Of a stretch of 64,000 nucleotides of DNA, positions 4,658 to 41,136 are shown piece after piece; position 1 is the first letter of the stretch, and each line of letters begins with the position of its first letter. The DNA comes from Amphibalanus amphitrite. Lineage: Eukaryota > Arthropoda > Thecostraca > Balanomorpha > Balanidae. The DNA is taken from the NCBI RefSeq assembly GCF_019059575.1, contig NW_024881857.1:248001-312000 (forward strand), read 5' to 3'. The notes beneath the pieces are model-generated. The model was not told where the DNA came from. It made no database searches and was given only the letters and a program-made list of their open reading frames with translations. The translations under genes were made by a program, and so were the position numbers.

Positions 4658-5570
4658 GGCGCCCCCCGCTCAGAGCTCGGTGGTCATACTGGCAGTCACT
4701 TGCATGTCACTGCAAGAAAGGATGCTGGTGGTTAGTATCATCATAAAGGTGCATCTTCCAAGTCAAGTATGGTTTCATGATAATTGCTTATGATGCTACA
4801 GGATTTACTGTCCTAGATCCCGTCCTTGCTCCCTAGATCCAAGGACAGGATCTAGGGAGGCAGTCAACACAAAAAATAGTGTGATTTTAGTTAAGGAAGA
4901 ATATCTAATGCTACATAACTACAGGATGTCTGTAAACCCTATAGTAGGTACTTGTCAGTCTCAAGGCTATCGTTTGATGCTGAAATAGGTAGATTCATTC
5001 TATGCATTACATAAGATAAATGGATTCATTCAGTTGAGAAGAAACTCAGGCAAGACAAAGAAATCAAACAGCATAACCTCAAAAAAGAGCTAAAATTCAG
5101 AATCAATATGAAAATGGCATCAATATTCTATTTCATATATTTAAATATCTGTACAACCAAATTGCATGCTTACATTGAAAAAGAAAATGTTTATTCTTTA
5201 TCAATATATTATCAACATTTTGCAATATTGTAAGCATGTTTAACTTCAGGGTCCTGCATTCAGTTAAATAGTTGCTTATTATCTTTTGTCTTTTCTTTGG
5301 TGTTGTGATGTGAGGATTGACACTTAAACGTAAAAAGTCAGACTGATTTTTCTCATGATAAAAAGGACATTTCGTTTTAATCAAGTGTCAATGGCAGTCA
5401 GCCGTCAGGCGATGAGTTAGGTATGCAAATAGCTGGTTGTGTTTGGAATTGAAATGGAGAGATAAAAAGGCAACATTTTTTATACATGTATAAGACTAGG
5501 CGAGATAATAATATATCTGATGCATTACAACAAAAAAATACGAAGAAAGCAATAACAACTTAATCATAAT
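4658..5570. other. Intergenic, A+T-rich
   Basis: This lies upstream of the minus-strand proline-rich gene and should hold its promoter and 5' UTR. An imperfect inverted repeat around TAGATCC/GGATCTA occurs at about 4812-4859. The rest is A+T-rich with no coding signal. Confidence 0.4.
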
Positions 5571-5574
5571 TTGC

Positions 5575-7663
5575 TGGTTTGCTGGTGTTAATAAGCGAGT
5601 GAGAAATTTTAATGTTTCATCTCAGGCGTCGTATGAATATTCTATGATTGAAAGATTTCGGGAATCGCCAAAGTCATTGCACTCCTACATAAGATCAAAG
5701 AAAGTAGGAACAATGTCGGTTGGTCCACTTCGGCAAGCGGATGGACATATTTCTTCGGACCCAAAAGTTATGAGCGAATTTCTGGTCTCTTCATTTGCTT
5801 CAGTGTTTGTCAAAGAAGTCCCTGTTTCACAGGAGCCTCACCAGTGCTACGACGGTGAAATTGAACCATTGCGAATTACTGTTGAGGAGGTCCGCACATA
5901 TCTACGCGCCTTAAACCCGAACTCCGCGATGGGTCCCGACTTCCTCCACCCACTGATCTTGAAAAACTGCTCAGATACCCTAAGTTACCCGATTTATGTG
6001 ATTTTCACCCGATCGCTCTCGGAAGGTTTAGTTCCAAGCGCCTGGAAGAGATCCACTGTTGTTCCGCTGTTTAAGAAAGGTAGTCGCTATGACCCTCTCA
6101 ATTATAGGCCAGTGAGTCTCACTGCTGTGTGTTGCAAAACGTTGGAGCGCCTTATTGTGAAGCACATCTACTCGTATTTAGAAGCCAACGAACTACTGTC
6201 TGTTCACCAGTTCGGGTTTAGACAGGGTAGATCCACGATGGAGCAGCTTATTCTTGTATATGAGGATATCTCAGCCAAAGTAGATGCAGGGCAAACAGTG
6301 GATCTTGTGCTTTTTGATTATTCAAAGGCTTTCGATGTAGTATGCCACCAAGTTTTGCTTACAAAACTAGAACTCATAGGCATTAAAGGTCAACTTTTAT
6401 CATGGATCTCTTCTTTTCTCTCTGACCGTCTGATGCAAGTGTGTGTTAATGGACTTAACAGTAGCACCAGAAATGTCTACAGCGGTGTTCCACAAGGCTC
6501 CGTGTTGGGACCTTTGTTGTTCTTAATTTATATTAACTTTATAGGTTCTAAACTGTCCTGTTGTTACAAAATATTCGCCGACGATTTAAAATTGTACGCT
6601 TCAGTTACTGCTAACTCGATGTCGAATCCCCACACTGATGGAGTGTTACAGAATGACATTGATGTGCTGCACAAGACATCTGTGTCTTGGGGCTTGAGGA
6701 TGAACAAGGAAAAGTGCGTTGTGTTACGTTTTTCCCGCAAATCTAAAAATCAGTCTGTTCCTATGTATACTATGGATGGAACTCCACTTCCTGTGTGCCG
6801 TTCACAACGCGATTTAGGTGTATTAGTTGATGTCTCGTTAAAGTTCCATGATCATATTGCTTCTGTGGCTCATAAGGCTTCTGGATTGTCTTATAATTTT
6901 GCTAAATCTACGGTATGTCGTTCTCGAGACTTTATGTTGTTTTTGCTTAAGACGCACATAAGACCTATACTGGAGTACGCTTCCTGTGTGTGGTGTACAG
7001 GCTTCATTGACGACATGCGTAGGCTTGAAGGCGTTCAGCGCAGATGGACAAAGCAGATAGAAGGCCTTGAGAATCTGACCTACTTGGAGAGGCTGAAGGA
7101 ACTGGACCTATTCTCAGTGCAAGGGCGCCTTCTTCGTGCTGATCTCATTGAATACTGGAAAATTTTCCATGGGAAGAGTTCAATTGCCCCTGGGAATATG
7201 TTCGTTCAGCCTCTACATCGGGGAACGCGTGGACATAGTTTAAAGATTCATGTGTCGCGCACTCTATCTGACCTGCGTCAGCGCTCTTTCTCGCAACGTA
7301 GAGTCACTGTGTGGAACAGCCTGCCAGATGATGTCGTGACTTCAGTAGATGTATCCACATTTAAACGGCTGCTGGCCAGAACGTTAGGCGATCTGCTATA
7401 TGATTATGTTTAGTTACACCTACTAGAACTGATAATGCTATTGTGATATAAATGTAAACACTCCGTATTGATGCATTATTCCTGTATTACACACTTAGGA
7501 CACACATTTCCAGTTTTGGAGTTGAGTAGTTGTATTTACCGTCTTGTTCATCTTGAAAACTGGCGTGTCCCTTTGTACACGGGTTTCCTTCTACCTCATC
7601 CCTTGCCTGACCTGAGCTGCGAGGTGGAGGAAACCCCACCAGGTAAGAATACCAGGTAAGAAT
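5575..7663 (+). mobile_element. 5'-truncated non-LTR retrotransposon (LINE)
   Basis: A LINE fragment containing the reverse-transcriptase ORF described separately, a 3' UTR of about 250 bp, and a tail of two exact 13-bp copies of ACCAGGTAAGAAT at 7638-7650 and 7651-7663. Short tandem 3' tails instead of poly(A) are typical of the CR1/L2 group of LINEs. The endonuclease domain expected upstream of the reverse transcriptase is missing, so this is a 5'-truncated copy, as usually left by target-primed reverse transcription. The left boundary is approximate, because open reading continues a little upstream of the first start-like codon before changing to unrelated A+T-rich DNA. No target-site duplication was found. 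Confidence 0.8.
5599..7413 (+). CDS. LINE reverse transcriptase ORF, truncated at the N-terminus
   Basis: An uninterrupted reading frame of about 604 codons encodes a non-LTR reverse transcriptase. Visible motifs in order are NSAMGPDFLHPLIL, WKRSTVVPLFKKG, NYRPVSLT with FGFRQGRST, the catalytic DYSKAFD, GVPQGSVLGPLLF, and the catalytic FADDLKLYA at about 6573-6600. The thumb and C-terminal region follow (RDLGVLVD, HIRPILEYASCVW, RRLEGVQRRWTK, TVWNSLPDDVV), which is the arrangement of jockey/CR1/L2-type LINEs. The apparent start is a GTG, which I take as an artefact of truncation. With no endonuclease and no first ORF, the copy cannot move by itself. The uninterrupted frame suggests a fairly recent insertion. 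Confidence 0.9.
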   Translation: MRNFNVSSQASYEYSMIERFRESPKSLHSYIRSKKVGTMSVGPLRQADGHISSDPKVMSEFLVSSFASVFVKEVPVSQEPHQCYDGEIEPLRITVEEVRTYLRALNPNSAMGPDFLHPLILKNCSDTLSYPIYVIFTRSLSEGLVPSAWKRSTVVPLFKKGSRYDPLNYRPVSLTAVCCKTLERLIVKHIYSYLEANELLSVHQFGFRQGRSTMEQLILVYEDISAKVDAGQTVDLVLFDYSKAFDVVCHQVLLTKLELIGIKGQLLSWISSFLSDRLMQVCVNGLNSSTRNVYSGVPQGSVLGPLLFLIYINFIGSKLSCCYKIFADDLKLYASVTANSMSNPHTDGVLQNDIDVLHKTSVSWGLRMNKEKCVVLRFSRKSKNQSVPMYTMDGTPLPVCRSQRDLGVLVDVSLKFHDHIASVAHKASGLSYNFAKSTVCRSRDFMLFLLKTHIRPILEYASCVWCTGFIDDMRRLEGVQRRWTKQIEGLENLTYLERLKELDLFSVQGRLLRADLIEYWKIFHGKSSIAPGNMFVQPLHRGTRGHSLKIHVSRTLSDLRQRSFSQRRVTVWNSLPDDVVTSVDVSTFKRLLARTLGDLLYDYV

Positions 7664-11939: not shown

Positions 11940-12890
11940 TTCAGGCGGCGCCTGAGTAACACCCGAGTATCGTATGAGTTATCGATGTGAGTACGTCCTG
12001 AGTCAGGGGCGGATCCAGAAAATCTCCAAGGGAGGGGCCATTAGAAACCAGGAGGCCCCCCCCCCCATAATCCCACCTGTTGGAGGCCCCATCTTCCCAC
12101 TTGTTGGGCCCCCCCCCCCCCCCAAAAAAAAACTGCGTCTATTGAGCTTATCTAGCTGTTCAGGCAACATCTCAACATCTGTGCAGGCTTGGAGGCCCTC
12201 TGTGCAGGTTAGGAGGCCCTGTAAAAGTGGTCATCTCTGTGAGTATAAGAGACCTCCAAGTTATGAAAAGCTTTACCAATCTTCTAACAAAGAAGTCTTC
12301 TCAGCTAGTCTTCTAAGAAATAACTAAGTGGGTAGGTTAAAAAAAACTCATCGGATTTCGGCCACTTTATTTTCAGGAGGCCCCCTTTTCAGCTTTTTAA
12401 CTTTTTAACTTTTTATTTTATTTTTGAAAAAAATCGGCCAAGGGGGGGGCCATGGCCCCCATGGCCCCCCCCTTGTATCCGCGCCTGTCCTGAGTACAGC
12501 CCTAGTTTTCACTGAATAACCGATGAGTTCCACCTGAGTTATGGCCGTACTACCACCTGAGTTATACATTAGTACCAGCTGAGTTACATGTGAGTTACTT
12601 CCTAGTTTTTCATGAGTAATGACTTACTATTACCTGAGTTTTGCCTGAGTTGTCTGAGTAGGACATGAGTTACGCATGAGTACTTAATGAGTTTTATCTG
12701 AGTTTTACCATCGGACAAAATGGCAACTCACTTTGTTACTCACATGCTACTCACTTGCAATGAGTTTTGCCCGAGTTTTACCTGCGTTCCGCCCTGAGTT
12801 TTACCTGAGTACGCGGATTTAGAGTGAGTTTTACCATTGGACAAAATGGCAACTCAGTCATTACTCAGAAAAGTGAGTAAAAAATTTTTT
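11940..12890. repeat. TGAGT/ACTCA motif array
   Basis: Short TGAGT(T/A) motifs, mostly preceded by CC, GC or CA, recur at irregular spacing of roughly 10-25 bp, interrupted by the nested hAT-like insertion at 12004-12487. A sparser counterpart lies at 8665-8990 near the other end. The motif also occurs in the terminal repeat (TGAGTA beside the A/T tract). Clustered subterminal motifs of this kind often serve as transposase-binding sites; that role here is inference. Confidence 0.7.
12004..12487. mobile_element. hAT-like non-autonomous element, 484 bp, with 8-bp TSD
   Basis: The element begins CAGGGGCGGATCCAG and ends GTATCCGCGCCTG, imperfect inverted repeats. It is flanked by a perfect 8-bp direct repeat, TCCTGAGT, at 11996-12003 and 12488-12495. 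An 8-bp target duplication with CAGGG-type ends is characteristic of the hAT superfamily. The interior holds G/C tracts and no transposase. It sits within the TGAGT motif array, so it landed after that array existed. Confidence 0.85.
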
Positions 12891-12895
12891 CAGTG

Positions 12896-14600
12896 TACGT
12901 CCTCGACGTCAAGGCCTCGTCTAACATGTTAACTGGGGGGGCCAAACCCCCGCAGTCATCGACCTGGCCCCCCCCCCCAGTCAGGGCAAAAAGTCCCTAC
13001 TGGGGGGGGCCGGCAATAGTCAAAAGGCAAACGAATTTTTATTTCGCGGCGTCAGTGCACATAAAAACAAATGCGTAAACGAAACAATGCAATGTGACCA
13101 CATTGAAATACCCCATTACCTAGGGCTGTTATGTGTTTATTTTGTTTACCTAAACCTTTTTTTCGCTCAGCAATACGTTACATTTCGTCTTTTCAGGCGA
13201 CCAACTCCGTGTCCTGGATATTCTTTTTTCATTAATTTTGTCCGAACCTTTTGAATGGAAGGATTCACAAGTACAGAGCCCCCGCCAAGTTGGCCGGCCT
13301 GCCCTCTACCCTCCGATCGCGCAATTCGTGATCTATGACAGAATTTAGAGCCCAAAGTTTAACGTATGCACATAGCCGCGCACGGCCGGTCCCATCACTG
13401 ACTTCGAATGGCTACGGCCTGCCACCAACCGTAACCACGCCAGGAGGCTCATAAAGATCGTGCGATGTCGCGCTTCGAACCTGGACTGTTATAACCGGGA
13501 CGCGTGCCCTCACCACGCGGAGTCCAAGGCTCTACCGGCAAAAATTTCTCCTTTAGGTATCAATCTGTTGTTTCTGTCCTCGCCCCTCGGGGCGTCAATC
13601 TCTTGTTTTTGCCTATCGTCGTCCTCGCTAGCGGCGTCCAACTTCTGGCTGGACGGTCACCGGTGTGCGGCTAGAGTAGCTCCTAATCGTAATGAAGCAG
13701 GCTCCCGTTCTGAGTGGTCAAACGTAGGCGCAGATGCCAGATTGGTGGTCTGTCTGTGGGGACGGGAACTCTGACAGCTCTCGATTATCTTAAGAAGTCG
13801 GCATGGAGTCCTGGAGGGCAAATGCCAGCCACTTCGTGTCCCAACTCCCAACTGGCCTCAAAGCACTACTATCTTCATTTTTGTTTAGTTTATAGCCTCT
13901 GACGAGTGACGACCTTAAGGTTGTGTCGAAGATCCACGGCGATTACGGAGAATCCACCTGAGAAGACATCAGTCTCCATGTTGATACACAGGCATTACAC
14001 TGGTCTGAGGGGGCCCTATAGTGGGAAAATACGGTCTCCACTCAGATTGACCCTTAAAGCCTGGTATGGATCATATAAAACCAGTGTGGGCTACCTACCA
14101 TAGAGGCCGACGTAGGTCCAGAAGCTGACATTAGCCCTCAGAGATCGGCATCGAGCGCTCAGAGGGACCCATCAGAAACCGATGTGGTTCATAAAAAAAT
14201 GCGTATGGGCCCTCGACATAAGGCTCGGCATGCAAATTCCTTAGACACGGCTGACGGCACTGCCACTCAAACACACGCTCAACAACGAGAAGTGTGATTA
14301 TTATTGTCTGATGAGGCAATGTGAGGAGGCTATAAACTAATATACAAGCATGGGTCGGATGGCCTACTATTTTTTTTAGTTTAAAAAAATATATTCATGG
14401 TGTCAGGGCTGTGATGAAAAATAAGTGGTCTAAATCCGGTGAGAAAACAGGTTTGGCTCCTTTGGTACCCTAGGTTTGGCTCCTTCAGTCTCTGGCCCCC
14501 CCAGTGAAAATTCCTTAGACGAGGCCCTGCTCGACGTCGTACAAACTGAGCCGTTCTTGGGAATGAAATATAAAACGCTTCCTGGGTCCTGGCCCCTAAG
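12896..14600. repeat. Relic repeat region with inverted ends and GGGGGGCC tracts
   Basis: The segment at 12897-12950 (GGCCTCGTCTAA followed by ACTGGGGGGGCCA) recurs in inverted orientation at 14482-14545, so the interval may be an old inverted-repeat element or two copies in opposite orientation. Between them are GGGCCC-rich phrases such as CTGAGGGGGCCC that resemble degenerate forms of the minisatellite units at 30.6-35 kb. No protein is recognised. Confidence 0.4.
13450..13545 (-). repeat. tRNA-derived SINE-like head
   Basis: On the minus strand there is an A-box-like GCGTGGTGAGGGCAC (13518 to 13504) followed by a B-box-like GGTTCGAAGC (13481 to 13472). The spacing is close to that of an internal RNA polymerase III promoter. 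No complete cloverleaf forms, so I treat it as a SINE head, not a tRNA gene. The tail was not delimited. Confidence 0.4.
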
Positions 14601-18276: not shown

Positions 18277-19524
18277 TCAGTAGCTTGGATCTTGGTTTAA
18301 GCGGCGAGTGCACAGGAACGTGCACCCAGCAGCCTGACACAAGTCCCAGATTTTCACCACGTCTTTTATCGTTTGTCGCAGTCCTCGAATGGAGTCGATG
18401 CTGGCGCCGCCACCGACCGTCCACCACTGCAGCCAGGCGTCGCTCTCCTGAAGAAACTGCATGTGTTCTCCCGCCGTTGCTGGATGGAGGCTGGATATCG
18501 CGCGTCGCTTTGAGCAGGGGTCGAACCGGGCGGAAGAGTTTAGCACATCGAGCAGGTCGTTGAGGCGCAGCAGGAGAGTAGCAGTCGGGAGTGCAGTGCG
18601 CGGGAGCTTGCCGTGGGTCGACTCGCATGCAATGTGATTGCTGCTGCTACTGTCCGGCTCATCACCTGTAGGGCATAGCTGACTTTTATTTTTCAAAGCT
18701 GTTTGGCCTGATGTGTTTCTGGCTTAGTTTTGGAGCAGCCCGTGAGAAAGAAGCGCATTCCAGTGCGTAGAGTGTTTCTAAATGACTCCAAGAGGCTACT
18801 TCACCGTCTACTTCAATATCGTATAATTTCATTAATGCATTTCGTATGCATTTGAAGATGTGAGGCACGTCATACAGAGCAGCAACCTCGTGCCCGTCCA
18901 CGGTGAACAAGCCGGTTTCCGCAGCTCCGAGCAGTCTGTAGGTCGCCTGGTTGTTCTTTGACATGTCACAAGTTGTAGCTAGCACAGTGAATCCCGCTAT
19001 TGTTGTTACACGTTGGACACACTGTGTTAACAGCTGCTGCTGCACAACGGCCTTGGTCGTTCCGGAACTCAGAAAGAAACCGATGGGCTGTTTCCAGCGT
19101 TTGGTGACACTGACGCCCTGCACCATCATGACCAAGGCGTGGTCGGCGCAGGCATTGGCGCGGCAGAGAGAGAGAGCCATGATCAATGAAGCCGTCGATG
19201 ACGTCATCACCCCGCTGGTAGGCCAACCTTGGTTTCAGCTGCATTTCGTCGAACGAAATGATGCACAGCTTGTCCTTGGCACTTGCTCCGACGAACTTCT
19301 CTAGTTATGAGAGCCAAGATAGCGTCATGAAAGCCAGGTCGCATCTGTATTTTTTCCATCTTCCTCCGCAGAGTTCGAGGATGGGGAAGGACGTACCGTT
19401 CTTGTAGGAACCGATATGCCCTGGGACCAAGGCCATATATAATCCTGGGACCCTGAAAGTAGAGCGCGAGTGCTCGCACTTCCTCATCTTCATCAAATTT
19501 TAGACGAATTTCATCGAATTTCAT
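18277..19524 (-). pseudogene. Broken P-element/THAP9-type transposase
   Basis: Read on the minus strand, fragments of a P-element-family transposase occur in the expected order but in different frames. They are PHPRTLRRKMEKI (from 19524), LCIISFDEMQLKP with the first catalytic Asp (about 19275), ADHALVMMVQGV and KRWKQPIGFFLS (about 19130), YDVPHIFKCIRNAL (about 18850), LSQKHIRPNSFEK (about 18700) and TRRLNQDP (about 18290). At least three frame breaks separate them; one falls in a CT dinucleotide run at about 19165-19175. The THAP DNA-binding domain and the C-terminal part after NQDP are missing. It is not a close duplicate of the intact gene at 21-26 kb, judging by the different residues around shared motifs. 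Confidence 0.85.
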
Positions 19525-24000: not shown

Positions 24001-26475
24001 GCGGACACGCCGCACCTGCTCAAGCTGTTGCGCAATCATGTGCTTGATGACGGCATCACTCTTCCCAACGGAGGACTGGTTGACAAACAGCTGCTGGCGC
24101 AAGTTCTTGCCATAGACGAAGGACGAGACTACAGGATCTTGCCGAAGCTAAACGTCGACACTCACCTCGAGGTATGTTAACAACTAAAAACTTAAAAAGC
24201 TAATAAACGGCTTACATTTAACAAGCGATAAAACCACTGTTATAACTTATACTACATAGTACATACCTATGAAATGCCTAAACAGAAAAGTTCGCGCTAG
24301 GTTATCAGAACTTCCCACGGCAGCCCGTGACGGGTGATACGGTGGCGGCCCCGAGGCTCGGTGTGGCCGGCCAGCCTCGCTTACAATGCAACTTGCATGG
24401 TCCTGGTCATTTTAATCAGTGCCGGAGCTGGAGCCGGAATGCCTATTTGGAGCCGAATCTGACTCAGATGTAAACGGCTCCGTATCCCTGCTTCTAACGT
24501 ATCCACAGGGCTTTGAACCGCGCCGAGTTGTTACCCCGATCGTAACATGTTGACTGTTGGGCCGGATAGATTCATGGTCCTCTACTACGGCCCCTGGACG
24601 TATTTCACAACATGCTTATGTGTTTGGAAAGCGGTCGTCTTTGTTGAGTACCATACTCATTTCTGCCCAGAGCTCCACTGCTATAGATATCCAATTCCAT
24701 TCATGGAGGGGTGTAACGACACGTGACACGCGCCTTTAACGATATTTTTTGGAAATTATATCCAGTGGCGCAGCCTGAACTTTGGTGGTGAGGGTGACAT
24801 GTGTCATGAATTGGCCCCCTAGCGGAGTGGACCCCTCCCAAAAATGAAAACTCATTGTTTTTGGCCACTTTATTCTCGGAGAACCCCTCAAATTGCACTT
24901 TGAACCATAAAATATGATAAAAAAAGGCGCGTTTTAGCACGAAATTGGACCCCCGTGATCAGAAATGGGATGACATGTTACCCCTGTCACCCCTGCTGCC
25001 TGCGCCACTGAGTATATCAAGGACGTATCATTTTCTATTCGTAAACAGATCCTATTGGTTCTACTGTTTATGTAAAAACGATATGGAATAATGTTGTGGC
25101 TGATTTCGGAAGTAGCAATGTCTAATGCTGTTTTCTTTCACAGGTGCATGGCCAAGCGCGCCAGAAAGTCCGACCCGCCGCCCAGCTGCTCAGCCGGTCC
25201 ACCGCCAAAGCCATCGAGAGATTCATTCCTCAGGAGAAGGAGGCAGCTGACTTCATTCGGCTCTGCAACGACGGGTTCGATGTCCTGAACGGGCAGTCGC
25301 CGTGTGACAGCAACCGTCTGCGGCGCGGACTCGGCAGCGCGTCAGTTGAGGCATTCCAGGTCCTTACCGACCTGGAGACAGCCATCCGCAACATGACGGT
25401 AGGACAGCGCAGCTCGCTCATGCCCTTCCAGAAGGGCTTCTTAGTGACAATCCGTTCCATGCGAGGGCTCGTCGCTGACATGGTCGATCGTCTGGGTCCC
25501 AGTACCTACGTACTGACTGGCCGAGTAAATCAGGACGCCGTGGAATCGTTCTTCGGTATGGTTCGTGGCAAGGGTGGAGCCAATTTTAATCCGAGTCCTA
25601 GCGAAGCGAAATCCCGTGTCAGGAACCTGATGCTTATGCACGTGATGAAGCTGGGTCTGAACCCAAAGGTCTCGCGCCAGGCTCGAGGACTGAAAGCATC
25701 ACGCCAGACTCGACCGGCAGCAGCAGTGGGAGACGAAGAAGGAAGCGGTGATGGAGCGATCGACGACACCGACTTCGCAGAGGAGAGGAGCGTGGAAGAG
25801 GACCAGGTGTCTGCAGACCTCTCAGACATGCAGTCGCTGTTTGTGGAGGATAACCAGGGCTCAAAGTCGAGATCGGAAGCGCGGAGCTCAGAGAGAGGGG
25901 AGAGGAGTACGGAAGGGGACGATGACTCTGCAGACCTCTCGGACTTGCAGTCTCTGTTTGTGGAGGTGAAGCACCACTACAAGTCGAGATCGGCGTCAAA
26001 CCGAGTGACGACGCCATCACGGGTGGACCCGCAGACCGGCGTCTCTGCGGAGATGTATGGTATGGCCCACGCTGCAGGGTACGTGGCAGCCAAGTGTCGT
26101 AAGGTGGACCCAAATCTGGGGGTCCCATCGGCATTCGCCGAGGAGGAAGTGCCTGTCGAAACAATGTGGACCCGTCTCATCAGCCGTGGTGGACTGAACG
26201 TCCCCACGGCTCGGTGGATGTCGGCCTTCCGGCAAATGGAAGCTACCTTCTGCCGACACCACCACATGGAGCCGGACCGCCTCTCCCGCCGGCCGGGCGT
26301 GATCGGGTCGCTGACTCGGCTGCTATGTGCTGAGCAGCCCGACTTCGATCCTAGAGTGATCCGCCGCTTCGTGCGCCTCCGCACCTTCATCCGGATGGCA
26401 TGCATAAACCGCGAGCTTCGTCGCGAAGCCATGGAGAAGCGGGAGGCGCGGAAGAAGAAACAATTCTCCGGCTGA
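21083..26475 (+). CDS. THAP9: THAP9-like / P-element-type transposase, six exons, intact
   Basis: Exons 21083-21486, 21834-22014, 22453-22728, 23140-23438, 23985-24171 and 25144-26475 join in phase with GT-AG introns and give 892 residues, close to human THAP9. Residues 1-90 form a THAP zinc-binding domain (C4, C9, C55, H58, W37, then AVP near 97). A leucine-rich coiled coil follows (about 150-190), then the RNase H-like catalytic region: FDEMK (D284), SDLGGSNRGLW (D357), FADTPHLLKLLRN, and NQDAVESFFGMVRGKGG (D580, E583). This order is that of P-element and THAP9 transposases, which cut and paste DNA. The start sits in an exon preceded by an acceptor at 21034; a polyadenylation signal AATAAA lies at 26978. 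It could be a live P-type element or a domesticated host gene. I found no terminal inverted repeats, and its exons match host G+C, which slightly favours domestication. Confidence 0.85.
23543..23791. mobile_element. Inverted-repeat mini-element with TTCAG array, 249 bp
   Basis: The ends are inverted repeats of about 23 bp with one mismatch (left CAGGGCCGGAATAGTTCG; right CGAACTGTTCCGGCCCTG). The interior is largely a degenerate (GTTCA)n pentamer array. It lies in intron 4 of the THAP9-like gene. CAGGG ends suggest a hAT-type mini-element, but I could not see a clean 8-bp target duplication. Confidence 0.65.
24763..25010. mobile_element. hAT-type mini-element, 248 bp
   Basis: It begins CAGTGGCGCAGCCTGAAC and ends GCTGCCTGCGCCACTG, forming inverted repeats. 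The flanks ATTATATC (24755-24762) and AGTATATC (25011-25018) match at 7 of 8 positions, as an aged 8-bp duplication would. It lies in intron 5 of the THAP9-like gene. The same CAGTGGCGCAGCC end occurs on the large element at 29324, so the two belong to one family. Confidence 0.85.
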
Positions 26476-26983: not shown

Positions 26984-29323
26984 CACTGGTAGAAATCCGT
27001 ACCTACTCTGTGTTTTATACATGTGTTTTACTCATCGGCCGGATCGTTCTTATGGCACGCCACACTTCATGATCAATGCTTTTGTGTTAATACATATAGG
27101 TAGATAAATTAGCCATCGGGATTGACACGTGGCATCATGTGGCATCTATTTATAGAGACCAGAAGGCAGAAAGTATTGCAGCCGTGTCAGACGAGGCCCA
27201 AATGCCTCCCACATACACTTCCGGAGCCGGAACCGCTAGATTTTGCCCGGAGCCGGAGCCGTTTTTACAGTTTACCCGGAGCCGAAATCCTTACTGGGAG
27301 CCGGAACCGACTGAGGTGCTCACAGCCCCGCATCCCTGGGTTCAGTAATTGACTCCAAATCTAGTGCCGAGGAGTACCTACCTTAACAACTTACCTGGCG
27401 GTTGCGGCCGTCGGCCGGCCGTTCGTGCTGCCATGTCGGCAATTTCGGTGTGTGCACGATAATATTAACTTTCTAGCATATGCTGTTCAACTAGTGAGTG
27501 GTTATATGAGGACTGAAAACCACTAAAGTGAAAAAACAATAATTTACTGCACCGCATCAACATTTCATTTTCAATAAGGGCTATATTCCATGTAACTTAA
27601 CAGCTATTTTGGCAAAATGACCCTTATTGCTGAATTTACAAGGTGTCGGTTGAAGGCGCACTGATGAAAAAATAAAGTTGATATCGACAAATGGACCCCA
27701 GAAATGCAAAGAGGACATCCCTGCCATGATATTAATATGCATATCAGCTCACTGAGACCTCAATATCACGTGTTATCGCGACCCGAAAAACACCTATCTA
27801 CCCGTAGCGTACAATGCTAGCGCCGGCTCGGTGTCGCAATGCTGACGTCACAGCCAGAGTTGCCACTGAACTTTGGCTACCCCTGGGTAAAGCTAGTAAT
27901 CCTACATAAGGCTGAAGCTTGCGACCACTGCACTGCGCCGATTTAAGTTGGTGAGTCGTTCTATTTATTTTATTCGTAAGACGTAATCTCAATGCCCACA
28001 CTGCCATAACCTTGGCATACCTAGCGATACCCATTTGCCCGTATACCACTATCAAATATGTCAGCAGACCCCTTAAATAGGGCGTTGGCAAGAAGAGCAC
28101 CAATTCTTTCAGGACACCACTGCTTCGCAGAGCTCAATGGATGCACGTCCTCCGTCACTCACCGTTTCCAACTCCTCCTCACACGCCGCGTTCGCTGCAC
28201 GGACGCGCCGAGGTTGTCGGCAGACAACTGGACGAGCTGGTCGGTCGGGCTTTTCCACCGGGGGAGAGAGAGGAGACCGCTAAAAATATGGGTCTGGCTG
28301 GCCACCGGGCGGCCGACGCCAGGTAAATATAGCCCGGCGACACCACTCACAGCCAAAATCCCCGCCGACGATGGCGGAGACGTCGACGACGATGCGACGT
28401 CGGCGGCGCGCGCTGCCCCGGCCCGGCCGTCCCCGAGCGGCGCGACCGACCCGGTTGTATTGGAACGGAAAGACTTCTGAACAGCCCCAGCTAAGATCGC
28501 AAAACACAGCCACAGCCTGGATACGTCAACTCGGTCAGTGAGCTGTCTGAGGCCCGCAGCCCGATCTCGCCGCCTGAAGCCCTAATGAATGTGATCGTCT
28601 GTATAGGATTGTGGACAATGGTGTTATAAGTTAACTAGACAGCTCGTCGCCACTAAGCCGGTGCCGATGGTTTCTTGAGACCGTTTATCAAAAATATTTA
28701 TTCGCTTCTCGTTCTGCAATCTGCATTCCCTCAAAACCTGACTTCCGAGTTTCACTGCTCGTCCCTCCACTCATTGCCCGTGTTACAAAGTCCGTTAGGT
28801 ACTCCACTCCATTATAGTGTTTTGCACAATTATGAGGCCGAGTCAGAAGTAGTTAACCGAGCGGCATACCCAGACAATTGGCCTCCAGCTAACGTCACAG
28901 ACATAACCTGTAACGGTGGGCCTTGCGAGAGCCTGCGGTCTCTCCGAGCTGAGACGAGGAAGCCATGGGCTGGGTGACGTGCTCCGAGACGGGCGGACTG
29001 GGACAATTAACCGCCAGCTGGGACGAGTGGCTGGTGACCGGTGGGCTACTGGACGATGGATCAATTTGCTGCAGTACAAGGAACCGACGGACAACCGATT
29101 GAAGGATCGGTACGGCGCTGCAGAACGAGTGACCCGAGGGCTGAGTCACCAATCGACTAAGTGAGTTATATCGTGAGGCTGAGAATCGCGTAGACGTTTT
29201 CCTACGAATACAATTCTTATTCTTAAAGCAGCAATACCGTCTGGCGAATTACTGTTCACGCCCGTTCGAATGACCAGACGTATAGCGAAGCTAAACGGAC
29301 AGCACGGATAAAAGTTATGGTCA
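26984..29323. other. No recognised gene; one G+C-rich patch
   Basis: The phrase CCGGAGCCGGAACCG is repeated at 27220-27315. A G+C-rich patch at 28300-28460 includes a well-placed ATG at about 28370 (MAETSTTMRRRRR) that could be a first exon or just a promoter-like island. No domain is recognised and no gene is called. Confidence 0.35.
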
Positions 29324-32245
29324 CAGTGGCGCAGCCAGAACTCTGGCGACGGGGGTGAGAGACGTTCGCCATGGGCCCCCCAGCGAAGTGGGCCCCCTCA
29401 ACCTAATGGGGGCCCCTTACCAACAACGAAAGGGCAGATCATTGTCCTGATAATAACCAGCCAAATCGGGGAAAAGGACAAATATCTCTTGATCTGAAGA
29501 GGCACGTAAAAAACAACAGCATATTTACAGAAACACGACCATTCTGCCCATATTTGATGGACAGCGTGCAATTCATGGCCAGCGGCCACTCAAATGGTCG
29601 GGCTAGGTCAAAAAGCTTTTAAAAAAGCTCAACATCAGTTTTTCGACTATTACTTTTGATATAGGAGACGAGGTAGAGTAATGAATTGTCTTGAAGGTGT
29701 TAATCATTCATTCGGATCAGTTGATGACAATCATGAACTTCTCAAGTAAGGGCATGACCTTGATCTGCGGTCACATTTTGAAGTTGAACTTTTTAATGGA
29801 AATTATAGGTGTTAACATTCGATGAATGTTAACGAGAGAATGATGACAAAGTAAATGTCTCATAATTTTTCTCACCAAAGTTCTTGGAAAAATTCTTAGC
29901 AATTAGCAAAACTATTTTGGTAAAATGCGACTATTTAGATGGTTTCGCCCTCTGCTCTGTTGCCAAACTTGACATGAGGCATTGAGGTCAAATCTTAAAA
30001 GCGAAAGCGTTTTGAAAGGCCTATCGAATGAGTTGTTCCGCGAAGCTCTAGCTCTTTGGTTCACGAGTTATACGGTAACGGTTATTTGTGAAAATATAAA
30101 AACAAGAATTTTTTCGTCGTAGTCTTGTCTTTGTGTTTATCATAATTTTATCATAATTTCATCTTCAATGACCTCAGCGATGACCTAATCGAAAAATGAC
30201 CTCTACGATTCTGAAGCATCCTACAGCAATCTGTTGCTTTTCTCGTCTTTCTAGCCTTCTTAAATTATGATCGGGTCTGGCCGATACGCCCCCCCCCCCA
30301 TGGCTGATTGCACGCGTTAGAGAGCTATCGTACCCACTTTCAGCGCGCTATAGCTTTATATGTCCTCGAGTGTCGAAATAGGCGAAACTTTTCCTTCAAT
30401 GAACATGATGACGTGGGCTTTGGTCTGAACTGCAACATGACTGAAGTAATTTCTCCATGATTTTCGACGCTCTTTAGAAAGCTGCCTACCACAGCACTTG
30501 TCGCTACGTGACCCTGGAGTCGGGTTAGAAGGGAATATTCAAACACCCCTCAGGGGCGTAAAACTGGAAAGCCTGGGGCCCTGCTCTGCGGGGCGCGGTC
30601 GAGCTAGGCTAGAGCCAGTTCGGGATGTTTACAAGCCCACGTAAAGCCCTCAAAAATCTGCATAGAGCACAGGCCTTCCAAGACTTGGGGTTTAGATATC
30701 AACAATCGACATGGTCTTTTGAGACCTGCGTGGTGGCTATCAGAGGTCGGTGGGCCCCTCAAAAGCCGGTGCAGGAGCCTCGGGTGTCAGTTTGGAGCCA
30801 TCATGGACCGGTGTGAAGTCCTGATGAATACTTAGGCGTCAAACCCCTAGACGTCAAGGTGGGGCCGGGCGGTGAGGCAGGCACAGACCTGAAGAGAAGA
30901 GGAATTTTCAGATGTCGGCTTGGCATCTTAACACCGCGTGGTTCTCCTGCTCAGTGACCCGACCTGACCCCTCCTCAGACACCCACCGTGTGGTGGGGCC
31001 CTGCATGGCTTTCTCAGAGGCTGACATATCGTACTGCGGGACCTCCATGAGCCTCAAAAACCTCTATGGGCCCCCTCACGCTTGGGGTAGGCTTCCTGAA
31101 GCATAAAATCTCTGAGTCTTGAGATGGGCCCATTAGACATGAACTGGGCCATCAATATACATGTGGTGAGTTGACCTATATCAAACATGATATCGGCTCA
31201 ATCAGGATTGGGATAGGCCCTCTCAGACCCAGACCAGGCACGGAGTACGGACCCTCCCACACATAGGATGATCCTTTCATTCCTGGGATGAGTCTTCTCA
31301 GGCCTGAAATGGGCCCCTCTCAGGCCTGAAGTGGACCCTCTCAGGCCTCAAATAGGTCCTCTAGGGCCTGAAATGGGCCCTCTCAGGCCTGACATTAGCC
31401 CTCTCAGACCTGAAATGGGCCCCTCTCAGCCCTCAAATAGGACCTCAAGGGCCTGAAATGGGCCCTCTCAGGCCTGACATTAGCCCTCTCAGACCTGAAA
31501 TGGGCCCCCTCAGCCCGTAAATGGTCCCTATCATGTCGAAAAAGGGCCCCCTGGCCCTCATACCGTAACTGGGCCCTCTCAGGTCTGAAATGGTGCCTCT
31601 TATGCCTGAAATGGGCCCTCTCTGGCCTCAAACGGGCCCTCTCTGGCCTCAAACAGGCCCTCTAGGGCATGAAATGAGCCCTCTCAAGCTTGAAATGGCC
31701 CCCTCAGGCCAAAAATGGGCCCCTCTCAGGCCTGAAATGGGCCCCTCTCAGGCCTGAAATGGGCCCTATCAGGCCTCAAGCATGCCATCTAGGGCCTGAA
31801 ATGGACCCCTTCAGGCCTGAAATGGGCCCTCTCAGGCCTGAAATGGCCCCTCTCAATCCTCAAACAGGCCCTCTAGGGCCTGAATTGGGCCCTCTCAAGC
31901 TTCAACTGGCCCCTTCAGGCCTGAAATGGGCCCTCACATACCTGAAATGGACCCTCTCAGGCCTGAAATGGCCCTTTCATGCCATGGAACGGGCCCTCCT
32001 AGGCCTTGGATTAGTTCAATCGGGCCTTGGATCACCCCTTAAATCATAAAATGGGACTATATATCCTAAGGGGGGGGGGCTATCAGGCCTGAAGACTGTT
32101 TTTCAGTCCTATGACGGACCTTGACATTAGTGATAAAAATATTGTCAGGCTGCATAACGTTACAGTTCGAATCGACGGTGGGCCCCTAGGATAAGAGACG
32201 GGGGTGAGATCTCACCCCTTTCACCCCCCCCTGGCTGCGCCAACT
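29324..32245. mobile_element. Large hAT-like element carrying a 21-bp minisatellite (2.9 kb)
   Basis: The left end CAGTGGCGCAGCCAGAACT pairs with a decayed right end, CCTGGCTGCGCCAACT. The flanks TATGGTCA (29316-29323) and TATGGATA (32246-32253) match at 6 of 8 positions. The end sequence is the same family as the 248-bp element at 24763. Inside are several TGACCT-type phrases, a C-tract at about 30289, degenerate GGGCCC repeats from about 30600, and a regular 21-bp minisatellite (31285-32010). No transposase is present. Confidence 0.7.
31285..32010. repeat. 21-bp minisatellite, unit GGGCCCTCTCAGGCCTGAAA(T)
   Basis: About 30 or more tandem copies of a 21-22 bp unit near GGGCCCTCTCAGGCCTGAAA plus T, with variants such as GGCCTCAAACAGGCCCTCTA. 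Because 21 is divisible by three, long stretches stay open on both strands and give repetitive peptides (LRPEMGP-like on plus, RPERAHF-like on minus). I regard these as by-products, not genes. The array lies wholly inside the hAT-like element. Confidence 0.9.
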
Positions 32246-32794
32246 TATGGATACACGTTTTCAGTTGCATCCAGCATAATTGAACGGATTATATCGCACC
32301 GCGCGGAGAAGCGAACCGCCTGTGCTAGAGCTTTTTGATCTAGCTAAATGTATCTCAGCCTTAGAAAGAAACGCAATACGTTTAAAAACGTATCCTCCGT
32401 CCTACCGCTCTTTAAAATTGTCACGGCACTCCGAGACTAAGAAACGGAGGAACGAATCGAACCACCTATGGCAGGCGCTAAAGAGTCCACTCAGGTGTGT
32501 GTAGGTACTCGGCCTCTGAACCGGCATGGAGCATCGTGAGACTTACTACCTATTAGTCTGCAGTTTGATGCATAGGCGTAGGAACAGGGGGGGCCAGGTG
32601 GGCAAGTGCCCACCCACTTTTCGAGGTGGGGGGGCCAACCATGTGTTTTGGCCCACCCACTTTTTACTCGAGGCCCCTCGTCTCGATTTGAGAGGACGTC
32701 GCACGGACTCCAAGGGGCCGTGATGGATCCAAGGAGGCCCTCTGTTCATACTTGTCAGTCGAAGCCCCTGATACTGATGGCCTGAGAGGCCCTA

Positions 32795-33820
32795 GTGGAT
32801 CTGAGGAGGCCCCAATATCCACACTGGTCTGGGGAGGCCCCTGGCACTGGCGGTCTGGGAGGCCCCTCTATCCACACTAGTGAGAGGTCTGAGACTGGTG
32901 GTCTGGGAGGCCCCTCCATCCACACTAGTCAGAATAGGCCCCTGACACTGGCGGTCTAGCCGAGGCCCCCTACCCTCAGTAGTCAGAGGAGGCCCCTCTA
33001 TCCTCAATAGTCAGAAGAGGCCCCTGAGACTGATGGTCTGGGAGGCCTATCCATCTACACTGTAGTCAGAGGAGGCCCCTGAGACTGATGACCAGAGGGG
33101 CCCTTATAATCACATCAGGCAGAAGAGGCCCATGAGACTGATGGACTGAGAGGCCCTTCTATTCATACTGGCCACAGGAGACCCCCAAAACTTTCGGTCT
33201 GGGAGGTCCCTTAATCCGGCACCAGTCAGAAGAGTCCCCTGAGACTGATGGCCTGGGAAGCCCTTATATTCACACTAGGCAGAGGAGGCCCCTGAGACTG
33301 ATGGTATGAGAGGCCCTCATATTCACACCAGTCAGAGGAGGCCCCCGAGGCTGATGGCTGTGAGGCCCTTCTGTTCATATAACTGGCCACTGGAGGCCCC
33401 TGAAACCGGTGGTCTGGGAGGACCCTCTATCCACACTAGTCAGAAGAGGCCCCTGAGACCGATGGTCTGAGAGGCTCTTATATTCATACTGGCCACAAGA
33501 GGCCCCTGAGACTGATAGTCAGAGAGGTCCACTCCTAATGAATCTGAGGGGACCCTCTATCCACATTTACACTTTTCTAGGGAGGCCCCCGAGACTGATG
33601 GTCTGAGAGGCCCTTTTATTTATACTGCCCACAGAAGCCCCCAGAGATTAATGGTCTGAGAGGCTCTTCTATTTATACTAACCAGAGGAGGCCCCTAGGA
33701 TTGATGGTCTAACAGGCCCTTCTATTTATACTAGCCAGAGGAGGCCCATGAGACTGATGGTCTGAGAGGCCCTTCTATTCAAACTAGGCAGATGAGGCCC
33801 CTGAGAATGATAGTCCGAAG
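32795..33820. repeat. Minisatellite with a unit of about 53 bp
   Basis: About 19 tandem units built on GAGGCCCCTGAGACTGATGG, then TCTGAGAGGCCCTTCTATTC, then ACACTAGTCAGAG. Units vary in sequence and slightly in length. It lies inside the hAT-like element 32571-35304. Confidence 0.85.
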
Positions 33821-33889
33821 AGCCATGCGGCAGCAACTGGCCGTGGCCATATTTCGGCTCGGTAGGGCCCCACAGAGCTCATGAGAGCA

Positions 33890-34600
33890 CCTCAAGGGCT
33901 GCTAGGTAGACACGCTTATCCCCATAAGGGTGCCACGTCGGCTTCTGAAGGCTCCTTGTAAGCATCTAAGGGCCCTTTCCGGCCTCTAACGGCTCCACCC
34001 GCCTGTGATGGCTCCACACCAGTGTTTATGAGCGCCACACAGCGGCGCCTTTGAGGGTCGTACTAGTGTCTCTTAGGGCCCTATATCGGTGGCTCTGGGG
34101 GCCCCACACCGGCGCCTCTGTGGGCCACCACACCTGTGCATCTCAAGGCTCTATAGGTACATCTGAAGGACCCACACCGACACCTCTGAGGGCCCCACAC
34201 CAGTATCTCGGAGCTCTGAAGGCCCCACACCGGTGACTCTGAGGATTCACCGGCTCCTGAGAGCACCATGTTGATGTCTAACGGCTCCACAAGGCCACTG
34301 AAGGCACCACACAAGCTATCACTGAGCTCTAATGTCCATGTACCAGCCTCTGAGGGATTTAAGCCAGCGCATTCATAGCTCCACACCAGCAATTGTAAGG
34401 GCTTCACACTGAAGTATCTGAGGGTTCCACACCGGTGTCTCTAAGGGCCACATACCGGCATCTCTGAGGGCCCATACCGGCATCTCTGAGGGCCCCATAC
34501 CGGCGTCTCCGAGGGTCCACACCTGGCGGGCACCCATCAGCGACTGAAGGTCCCACACTGTCGACTCCGAGAGTCCCATCTGCGTCTAGGAGCACCATGC
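33890..34600. repeat. Minisatellite with a unit of 22-30 bp
   Basis: Irregular tandem copies of a unit near GGCCCCACACCGGCATCT plus CTGAG, most regular at 34420-34520. It continues directly from the 53-bp array in the same hAT-like element. Confidence 0.75.
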
Positions 34601-34609
34601 CGTCTCTAA

Positions 34610-35070
34610 GAACCACAGCGGCTCCTCCGTACGAAAGATGGGCGTCTGCATGCCAAAGGGGAGCGGTTCTGAGACAGTAAGGTAAGGCACCTACGTGCAA
34701 TAGAGGGGCGCCTATGAAGCCGATAGGGGCGCCTCAATCCGAAAGAAGGGCGCCTCTGAGGCCTACATATATGGGCGTCCACATGCAATAGAGGTCTGCA
34801 AATTGCAATTGATCAATGCCATGGGGGTGCATTCATAAGAAACAGGGGCGCCGGCATGGCAAAGAGAGGCGCCTTCAAGTGTCCATAAAAGAGAGACGCC
34901 TATGATAAGCGCACATTGTATGCGACAACGGACTGTGCGACTGTGGGTCACCAAATATGTCCCACAGTGTGGGACATATAGGGATGTCTCTGATGACTAT
35001 ACATAGGGCGCTTATATGCCAAAGAGGGCGCCTATGAAGCTAATGGGGGCACCTGGGAAACGAGGAAGAC
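34610..35070. repeat. Degenerate minisatellite, unit near GGGCGCCTATGAAGCC
   Basis: A third, more diverged family of tandem units containing GGGCGCC(T/A) followed by TATGAAGC or similar. It occupies the right part of the hAT-like element 32571-35304. Confidence 0.6.
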
Positions 35071-35890
35071 ATTTGTGTAAGGGTTTTCAGGGGTCATGCG
35101 CCGTTTGCGGACTCCGCACAAAAAATGGTGCGGACTTTCCGCACTTCGCTTAAGCGGGGTGCATCTGCCCGATCTCAGAAGCTAGATTTGGAGGTCATAC
35201 TTGAAAGCAGCCAGCAAGACAAAGCAAAAGTTGGAGGCCCCTGAAAATAGGAGGCCCCTTGACAGGGTGGCCCACCCACTTTTCATGACGTTCCTACGCC
35301 CGTGGTTTGATGAATCACGTCCGTCTAATGCTTTCAGTGGTCGATCATTCTCGAGTGCCTGCTGTAAGTGCCCAGGTCCGTGGGTAGAACGGGCCATTTC
35401 CAGGCTATTGAGTTCCCTTTGGTTCACCACCATGGTCAGGTGAGACGTTTGAGTCGTCGACTCTTATTGCTTCCTGGTGGACCGAATTCGTGAAGCCGTC
35501 TCACCTCTCGCCTCAGTGTGGTTTACCATCGAACAAAGACTGGGCCAATTTGCAAAAAATACAACATTTTAATGGTTTTCATCATCTGAAAACCTTAATT
35601 ACAGTACAAAACTGAAAACTGTACACTTACCGGTAAGCATGATACCTAGACAGTAGACATGCACAAATGAAAAACAAATTATTCTATGACGTCATATGAC
35701 ACCAGAGATTCTCGCTCAGTAAAAGAAGAAAGACTGCCTTGCATTTCTCCTTCCTTGCGACATTCAAATAGAATTCCTCTTTTCTCAAGGGACCTCAGAT
35801 CGCCTCAGATCCTTTTACTTGCCTTTTACAACACGGAGAAATACGAGGGTGTCACTGTTATTATTCGATTTGATTATATAATACGAAATT

Positions 35891-39733: not shown

Positions 39734-41136
39734 CATGGGCGTAGGAAAGGCTGAAACATTGTGGGTGCATGGGTGCAGAAATCCAGCCATGGCCGGTGAA
39801 GCGGGGGGGGGGGGGGGCGACACCCGAGCGAAGGCTCGTTACGGGCTTTGAAGGTGTACCATGTCGAAAAGGTACCAACCGATAAGTGCATTTGGAAACA
39901 TTGACCCTCGCATGTGTACGGGGGTCGGATGAACCCCCCCCCCCATGGTTGTTCGCAAATAACTCGCGCAAAAAGCGGCCGATCGCGACGAAACTTTTAG
40001 TACCCTCGAGTTGATCAGTTTTACACCTACTCTAAAAATTTCATGACCCTGACCCAAAAGACCTTTGACCTCTGACCTGATTCTCGAGACCATGTTCGGC
40101 CGGAATCGCGATTTATGTCAGCTCACATTATCCGCGCGTTTCCAGTCTTTTTGTGATTGTAGACGTCCAAACATGTGAAATGATGTTCTTCCCATGCATC
40201 ACGGTGGGTGTGAAGATAACCTGAAGGTCAGGTCAGGTCATTGACCTTTGATGACCTCGGTTCACTTTTTCGAGTTTTACATGTTTCTAGGGTAGTTTAT
40301 AGGGCTGATTTCGAATTTAGCATCCATTTGAACGTTAACGAAGTAGTTTTAGTGCTTTCGTGACATGCTACGACGCCGTCAGTGGTAGTTGACACCTACT
40401 ATGGATAGCCGGTAGGACGCCTAATGGTTGACCTGACCTGACCTGACCCGATCTGGCCTAAATGCATGAAGAAATCATCTGTGATCAAAACTAACATCAG
40501 ATATTTGTGATCAGCACCCCGAAAAAAAAAAACGATAACAGCTTCACTTTACGCAGTACTAGCAGGTCCCGATTTTCCCGACTTTTGGAATATTGACCTG
40601 ACCTGGAAGGTCAACCAATGAAGTAGGACCTTAAAATTGGGTATCATCGGCTTCCTCTCGTCACGGGCAACACCCTCGTTTTTTTCCGCGAAGCTCTAGC
40701 TCGATCAGGGGCCGAACGGCAGGGGGTCCGACCGACCCCCTCACATTAGAAGCTGGAAAACGCTGCACACATTCGAGGGCTAATATTGTCAATATTGACT
40801 ACCGCAAAAAGTAAAAGCGGCCAACTTAGCCATTTTCGAAGATATCGGGCTAAAATTTTTGACAGTGGGTCATCGGTTCGGTATGTGTTCAATCACATGC
40901 TCCATTTCCCTTTTTTCAGCACTTTTGAAGACCATCACTGATCACAGTAGCAAATGCTTCGAAAGATGAATAGTAGGCAACAGATCCTGAATTTGCCGTG
41001 CTGCATGGGAAGTAGTGTTGATGAAAAAGGGGTTTTTGGTTCAGATTATTGTGGGTGCAGAATACATTGTCTGCACCCACTGGATAAATATTGTGGGTGC
41101 AGCTGCACCCTTGCACCCAAGGTTCCTACGCTTATG
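39734..41136. mobile_element. hAT-like element, 1.4 kb, perfect 8-bp TSD
   Basis: It begins CATGGGCGTAGGAAAGG and ends GGTTCCTACGCTTATG, inverted repeats, flanked by a perfect 8-bp duplication AATGACGC (39726-39733 and 41137-41144). A second tier of inverted phrases, TTGTGGGTGCA and TGCACCC, lies inside the ends. The terminal repeat is the same group as the element at 32571 (CATAGGCGTAGGAAC). The interior has G and C tracts, TGACCTGACC repeats and no transposase. A relic of part of its interior occurs at 46190-46545. Confidence 0.88.

What the first reader, a model, noticed from the sequence alone, without database searches (positions are those of the whole stretch)
29324..35304. Two adjacent hAT-like elements with interiors that became GGCCC minisatellites
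Seen: element 29324-32245 (CAGTGGCGCAGCC ends, 6/8 flank match) holds a 21-bp array, and element 32571-35304 (CATAGGCGTAGGAAC ends, perfect GTTTGATG duplication) holds at least three array types (about 53, 22-30 and 30 bp). All units are different but share GGCCC and CTGAG/CTCAG phrases. Two different terminal-repeat groups carrying the same compositional kind of array suggests either one has invaded the other's arrays or these elements recurrently seed minisatellites. Inference: this could be a family of minisatellite-carrying hAT elements that spreads tandem repeats around the genome.
Basis: partly seen in the sequence, partly recalled or inferred. Interest (0 to 1): 0.8.

Follow-up and report, generated by a model that had tools for sequence, protein, structure and literature searches.

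The report
Jumping genes carrying inherited minisatellite arrays
Two neighbouring jumping genes in this animal genome each carry a long stretch of short repeated DNA, and the repeats turn out to be an inherited, built-in part of large transposon families that copy these arrays around the genome.

Summary
Both elements are hAT-type insertions. An apparently allelic contig of the same assembly has both sites empty, and other copies carry perfect 8-bp duplications. The ends are dispersed: 1,229 exact CAGTGGCGCAGCCAG sites against 3 for the reversed control; 1,478 CATAGGCGTAGGAAC sites against 1. Arrays travel with the ends: 30 of 30 element-2 left-end loci, 29 of 30 element-1 right-end loci (window copies included), and 10 of 10 surveyed TIR pairs.

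"Interiors that became minisatellites" is wrong as a per-copy process. In 280 of 316 array windows, other copies match better than the rest of the same array. Two larger elements with hAT transposase frames carry the same 21-bp array between one terminus and the transposase. The arrays are inherited parts of the elements.

Five element types with different arrays, on three TIR groups, were seen. Almost all arrays are dense in GGCCC, as are the ends. My best mechanistic guess, inferred only, is that arrays are overgrown subterminal transposase-recognition zones, a feature known in miniature from Herves. New variant of a known kind.

The parts
29324..32245 (+). Element 1: non-autonomous hAT-type element, TIR CAGTGGCGCAGCCAG; absent on the apparently allelic contig C500
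31296..32006 (+). 21-bp minisatellite of element 1 (unit TCTCAGGCCTGAAATGGGCCC, 33.5 copies), about 240 bp from the right end
32007..32245 (+). Right subterminal region of element 1, homologous to the array-bearing end of the transposase-bearing elements on C5 and C213
32571..35304 (+). Element 2: hAT-type element, TIR CATAGGCGTAGGAAC / CACGGGCGTAGGAAC, target duplication GTTTGATG; absent on C500
32800..33815 (+). 53-bp-type minisatellite of element 2 (also reads as 106-108 bp and other multiples)
34417..34523 (+). 22/23-bp array of element 2 (TCTGAGGGCCCATACCGGCATC)
34700..34763 (+). 21-bp GGCGCC-type array of element 2 (no GGCCC in it)
32246..32570 (+). Spacer between the two insertions; its only other full-length match is the empty site on C500

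Best explanation
These are two members of large hAT-type DNA transposon families whose internal minisatellite is an inherited structural part of the element; in element 1 and its relatives it sits in the long subterminal zone of one end. Shown: the elements insert as units with 8-bp duplications, and both insertions are absent from an apparently allelic contig. Shown: copies carry the same array in the same place, with gain and loss of units. Shown: larger relatives of element 1 with hAT transposase frames carry the same 21-bp array between one terminus and the transposase. Inferred: a hAT transposase supplied in trans moves the elements. Inferred, about 45%: the arrays are tandemly amplified subterminal recognition sites (GGCCC core) that raise transposase recruitment, and grow and shrink by unequal exchange or interrupted gap repair after excision.
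For: Empty site for both insertions. 8/8 duplications on element-1 copies in 7 of 9, on element 2 in the window and two other copies, and on 8 of 10 surveyed TIR pairs (one of these, L085, is also among the nine). Arrays in 29/30 and 30/30 end-selected loci and in 10/10 surveyed pairs. In the array, identity to the window copy is >=0.92 in 24 of 29 comparisons against about 72% between adjacent units. In 280 of 316 windows confined to arrays, six random other copies (median) match better than the rest of the same array, 12 ties. Of 62 indels of 15 bp or more in the array, 49 lie within 2 bp of a multiple of 21, chance about 24%. Both close transposase-bearing relatives that I fetched carry the array: L075 on C5, 63.7 copies, duplication CGCCGCCC, DUF4371 2.8e-16 and Dimer_Tnp_hAT 2.2e-7; C213, duplication ATATCGTT, 95.6% identical to L075 over 3.1 kb with the array included. 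GGCCC/GGGCC occurs at 24-107 per kb in the arrays measured, one excepted, about 30 per kb in the terminal 120 bp of six elements (12 of 12 ends have at least one), and 1.7 per kb in window background.
Against: The recognition-site role is inferred. Single ends often do not exceed dinucleotide shuffles in GGCCC count (both L086 ends do not), and G runs inflate it. One short element-2 array (34700-34763) has no GGCCC. Array units match their own ends only weakly (best p 0.010, E1 left), and the two lowest p values are cross-family matches. Some hAT-like elements in the same window carry no array: 12910-14529 and 39734-41136, the latter with an element-2-like TIR. The transposase frames of L075 are broken into pieces, so present activity is not shown. 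No transposase-bearing parent was found for element 2.
Confidence: 0.78

Rival explanations
1. The arrays are neutral passengers: tandem repeats that grew by slippage or aborted gap repair inside an ancestral element, survived because the middle of the element is free to vary, and were then spread by transposition. They have no role in mobility.
For: 49 of 62 large indels in the array lie within 2 bp of a multiple of 21, as unit gain and loss predicts; many are shared between copies, so they are not 62 events. Adjacent units are only about 72% alike. Array length varies from about 225 to 924 bp among the nine sibling-family copies surveyed. Elements without arrays exist.
Against: Does not by itself explain why different interiors on three TIR groups have GGCCC-rich arrays, nor why the transposase-bearing relatives keep about 60 units beside one end.
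Confidence: 0.4
2. The array is a cis-regulatory or insulating region of the transposase gene (promoter or enhancer repeats), since in the transposase-bearing elements it lies upstream of the transposase frames.
For: Position between one terminus and the transposase frames in L075 and on C213.
Against: Elements without a recognised transposase gene keep the array, which a promoter role does not need. No promoter evidence was obtained.
Confidence: 0.12
3. The arrays are ordinary genomic minisatellites, and the hAT ends are unrelated insertions into or beside them.
For: 2 of 18 clusters of the 21-bp unit on C1-C26 lie more than 7 kb from an exact terminal repeat.
Against: The empty site on C500 lacks element and array together. 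16 of 18 clusters lie within 7 kb of an exact terminal repeat. Arrays sit at fixed places inside elements flanked by target duplications.
Confidence: 0.02

Closest known systems
Herves (active hAT element of Anopheles gambiae; PMC3143072, passages and Background section read)
   Same: hAT element with one unusually long end that contains tandem repeats starting 146 bp inside; transposase binds a short subterminal motif at both ends
   Different: Only three imperfect 100-bp repeats and a different motif; here up to about 64 units of 21 bp, or other unit lengths, in several element types, non-autonomous ones included
hobo with TPE repeats (Drosophila hAT; PMC4807377, passages read)
   Same: hAT element with an internal tandem repeat of variable copy number between elements
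   Different: The 9-bp repeat is coding and short (three, five or seven copies in the passages); here the arrays run up to 1.35 kb and lie outside any recognised transposase frame
miDNA4 MITE satellite of Xenopus tropicalis and other MITE-borne tandem repeats (review PMC9659126, passages read)
   Same: A non-autonomous DNA transposon carries a tandem repeat and disperses it
   Different: The review's table passage gives Tc1-mariner for miDNA4; there a monomer born within a MITE goes on to form satellite DNA, whereas here the array is already present in transposase-bearing hAT relatives and, in the copies seen, mostly stays inside the element
Atenspm and ENSAT1 of Arabidopsis (one row in the table passage of PMC9659126)
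   Same: A tandem repeat family tied to the 5' UTR of an autonomous DNA transposon
   Different: En/Spm-like superfamily, not hAT

Membership tests
hAT superfamily | 8-bp target site duplication | tested here: met
   Element 2 GTTTGATG 8/8; seven of nine element-1 copies 8/8, one 7/8, one 3/8; L040 and L041 8/8; eight of ten surveyed pairs 8/8
hAT superfamily | Short terminal inverted repeats beginning CA (hAT consensus from recall) | tested here: met
   CAGTGGCGCAGCCAG, CATAGGCGTAGGAAC, CAGGGCYGGAGAAA
hAT superfamily | Transposase with hAT C-terminal dimerisation domain in an element with the same ends | tested here: met
   For element 1: L075 pieces match DUF4371 and Dimer_Tnp_hAT; same TIR, right subterminal region and array. 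For element 2: none found, so inconclusive there
hAT superfamily | Transposase of the family acts on these ends | not testable with these tools
   Needs a biochemical or transposition assay
MITE (short non-autonomous element; about 400 bp in PMC9659126) | Small size and no coding capacity | tested here: not met
   No open frame of 150 aa or more in 29324-35304, and I saw no transposase-like frame in the ORF lists of L071 and L072, which were not scanned with profiles; but element-1 copies of 2.1 kb and more and TIR pairs with median 3.5 kb are far above MITE size

The most novel reading that the evidence does not exclude
In this genome, several hAT lineages have turned their subterminal transposase-recognition motif (GGCCC core) into long minisatellites. 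The array would act as a transposase antenna that lets non-autonomous copies outcompete others, and hAT transposition would be a main source of GC-rich minisatellites across the genome.
Probability: 0.3. Interest if true: 0.8.

Novelty: new variant of a known kind. Interest (0 to 1): 0.52.

Why it matters
Minisatellites are usually pictured as arising and varying in place (general knowledge, not searched). Here hundreds or more hAT elements act as carriers of ready-made arrays, and two of them differ between what look like the two haplotypes of one assembly, so a new minisatellite locus can appear in a single insertion step. The recurrent GGCCC core in arrays and ends of several element types makes a directly testable link between tandem-repeat growth and transposase recruitment.

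Tried and rejected
Rejected: that element-2 interiors were swapped between copies. I first read the stop of hits at window 32701 that way (note, which is wrong); one search shows the same array beyond it, and the window copy simply lacks about 50 bp there.

Rejected: that the PF05699 hit at C902 marks a parent of element 1. It lies just outside a complete non-autonomous copy.

Rejected: independent seeding of arrays in each copy, and arrays as unrelated genomic minisatellites. My first window test (153 of 174) also took in some sequence outside the arrays; one search repeats it with arrays only.

Inconclusive: deriving array units from each family's own ends (weak and partly cross-family). The search with array plus right end could not show arrays without ends, because full copies filled the scored list; the pattern search was used instead.

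Led nowhere: naming the organism. CDT1 relatives at 76-80% identity are unnamed. I guessed a barnacle from recall of assembly sizes; the one barnacle paper looked at (passages of PMC8917513) lists an Amphibalanus assembly of 613 Mb, which does not match 808 Mb, so I make no claim. Literature searches listed no title or abstract that I recognised as describing such families; apart from PMC9659126 and PMC3143072 those papers were seen as listings only, and the library holds open-licence papers only.

The survey note calls it the 'first ten' pairs and unbiased; in fact ten of the first thirteen 2-4-kb pairs were fetched.
Full report
WHAT IS THERE. The window lies in an 807.6-Mb genome (2,644 contigs; window = C360:248001-312000). 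Element 1 spans 29324-32245 with a 21-bp array at 31296-32006. Element 2 spans 32571-35304 with 53-bp, 22/23-bp and 21-bp-type arrays. Most of the 40 scored hits to the element-1 left end start at base 29324; hits to the element-2 left end start at 32563-32571, mostly 32569-32571. The window copy of element 1 ends in ..GCCAACT; of 29 other right ends fetched, 28 read ..GCCACTG and L023 shares the window's form.

INSERTION AND POLYMORPHISM. The spacer between the elements (32246-32570) has one other full-length match, C500:219491-219831, 89% identical. The C500 stretch (L074) runs from window 29227-29320 straight to 32242-32570 and on to 35305-35542, with one copy each of TTATGGAT and GTTTGATG at the joints. 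A CDT1 coding stretch of the window matches only C360 and C500 (98% at protein level, one TGA flagged inside the C500 match), in collinear order. C500 is therefore best read as the other haplotype, and both elements as heterozygous insertions that arrived with their arrays. A duplicated region instead of an allele is not strictly excluded.

DISPERSAL. First-look candidates were 198 and 210 for the element-1 ends and 992 and 612 for the element-2 ends; 40 were scored in each. Exact CAGTGGCGCAGCCAG occurs 1,229 times (605+624) against 3 for the reversed control. Of the first 100 sites, 76 form 38 inward pairs under 15 kb, median 3.5 kb. Exact CATAGGCGTAGGAAC occurs 1,478 times (745+733) against 1; it marks mainly left ends of element 2, whose right end reads CACGGGCGTAGGAAC, and both ends of other elements such as L086. 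Some loci are duplicates or alleles of each other (L034 and L038; L043 and L044; probably L012 and L018), so the copies are not all independent.

TARGET DUPLICATIONS. Of nine element-1 copies with both flanks, seven show 8/8, one 7/8 and one 3/8 in register. Element-2 copies L040 and L041 show 8/8. A third pairing (L042 with the site at C1:16422) joined two left ends and does not count.

ARRAYS ARE INHERITED. The element-1 right-end query (32050-32265) lies outside the array; of its 30 loci (window copy included), 29 show the 21-bp array or its multiples within reach. The exception (L015) has a nested insertion, and its full copy L071 shows the array. All 30 element-2 left-end loci (window copy included) show GGCCC-type arrays, with periods reported between 27 and 215 bp. 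Against the window, ungapped array identity is at least 0.92 in 24 of 29 loci; the other five are L015 0.454 (nested insertion), L036 0.723, L035 0.843, L023 0.885 and L028 0.904. Adjacent units within one array are about 72% alike. In 316 windows of 63 bp confined to TRF arrays of 29 loci (L015 left out), the median match to six random other copies beats the best match elsewhere in the same array in 280 and ties in 12. Of 62 indels of 15 bp or more in the array in 28 loci, 49 lie within 2 bp of a multiple of 21; chance would give about 24%, and many are shared by descent. The arrays therefore predate the spread of the copies and change by unit gain and loss.

PARENTS AND SIBLINGS. L075 (C5, 8.6 kb) has the same TIRs, duplication CGCCGCCC, pieces with DUF4371 (2.8e-16) and Dimer_Tnp_hAT (2.2e-7), and a 63.7-copy array of the same 21-bp unit at the end homologous to the element-1 right end. 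C213 holds a second such element: both TIRs, duplication ATATCGTT, array at 796-2082 of L087, 95.6% identical to L075 over 3.1 kb, transposase frame of 618 aa; its middle was not fetched. Outside the array and right end, element 1 (29324-31290) matches L075 significantly only over the terminal 36 bp (5.9e-5), so it is not a plain deletion derivative. All ten carry arrays; one (L085) is element 1 and nine belong to a sibling family with a GGGCCC-rich array of about 22-bp units or multiples and usually (CT)n; L080 has only a 225-bp array. Duplications are 8/8 in eight, 7/8 in L079 and 6/8 in L082. A TIR pair 24 kb apart on C4 shares duplication GACCTATC, has ends like that sibling family and holds transposase matches near one end; its interior was not read, so that it is one element is inferred. 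Two nested insertions inside element-1 copies also have perfect duplications and arrays of their own: one of the sibling family in L072, and a third TIR group, CAGGGCYGGAGAAA, with 20-bp and 18-bp arrays in L071. An element with the element-2 TIR but another interior (L086, duplication CTAGACTT) again has GGCCC arrays. That makes five element types by interior and array, on three TIR groups.

ARRAYS WITHOUT ENDS. Exact matches to a 20-base core of the 21-bp unit (442 sites, control 0) form 18 clusters on C1-C26, where the TIR list is complete. Nine lie inside a TIR pair and 16 within 7 kb of an exact TIR; two do not, at C7:684265 and C7:1677041. Mutated ends there were not looked for. The test covers the 21-bp unit only.

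MECHANISM. GGCCC/GGGCC occurs per kb at 60.5 and 70.2 in the 21-bp arrays of element 1 and L075, 26.4 and 46.7 in the 53-bp and 22/23-bp arrays of element 2, 106.7 in the sibling family, 38.9 and 24.3 in the nested third group, 40-75 in L086, and 0 in the short 34700-34763 array; over 33850-35060 it is 14.0. The consensus of the 20-bp unit itself reads GGCCT. The 12 terminal stretches of 120 bp hold 43 (shuffled means sum to 15.3), the non-array interior of element 1 has 3.3 per kb and the rest of the window 1.7. Only some single ends exceed their own shuffles, and G runs inflate the count. Own-unit to own-end alignment is weak (E1 left p 0.010, NA left 0.025, E2 right 0.035), and the two strongest matches are between families. 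I read this as a shared core rather than clear descent of each array from its own end. Herves, a hAT element, has three 100-bp tandem repeats 146 bp from one end and a transposase-binding motif near both ends (PMC3143072, passages and Background). A highly repetitive subterminal sequence essential for Tol2 transposition is known to me from a reference title in that paper. Hence the best guess that the arrays are overgrown recognition zones, about 45%, with neutral passengers nearly as likely.

COUNTEREXAMPLES. Two of the four structurally complete elements found in the window, 12910-14529 and 39734-41136, have no array by TRF, and 12004-12487 has only two-copy repeats. Arrays are therefore not a feature of all hAT-like elements here.

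NOVELTY. TE-borne tandem repeats are known (review PMC9659126, passages; hobo TPE repeats, PMC4807377, passages). What is new to my knowledge, limited by the searches, is the scale, the recurrence across hAT element types, and the presence of the array in transposase-bearing relatives. I rate it a new variant of a known kind.

Noticed in passing
window 12004-12487: Short hAT-like element (TIR CAGGGGCGGATCCAG, duplication TCCTGAGT) with two-copy 24-bp and 21-bp repeats containing AGGCCC; possibly an early stage of array growth.
   Followed up: partly
window 12910-14529 and 39734-41136: Two further hAT-like elements with perfect 8-bp duplications and no tandem array; the second has an element-2-like TIR.
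   Followed up: partly
window 18686-19234 (-) and 25126-26475 (+): Open frames with TNP-like RNase H and GTP-binding domains by Pfam (THAP9/P-element-like by recall).
   Followed up: no
window 5521-7413 (+): Reverse transcriptase frame (RVT_1, 2.1e-31); non-LTR type by recall.
   Followed up: no
L075 3731-5075: Stretch inside the C5 hAT element bounded by palindromic AGGCATTTTGCAAAATGCCT-type repeats: probably another nested mobile element with tandem palindromic ends.
   Followed up: no
G000 C22 about 978000-1002000: Three TIR sites, each with a 21-bp-unit match about 300 bp away, spaced about 11.8 kb apart: probable tandem segmental duplication that includes the element.
   Followed up: no
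G000 C354:75674 and 84729 (L012, L018): Two element-1 right ends facing outward 9 kb apart with the same 323-bp insertion relative to the window copy: probable inverted duplication.
   Followed up: no
L074 785-1980 (rc of C500:217500-221900): The C500 contig has about 1.2 kb of extra sequence between the bases matching window 29211 and 29227, not identified.
   Followed up: no
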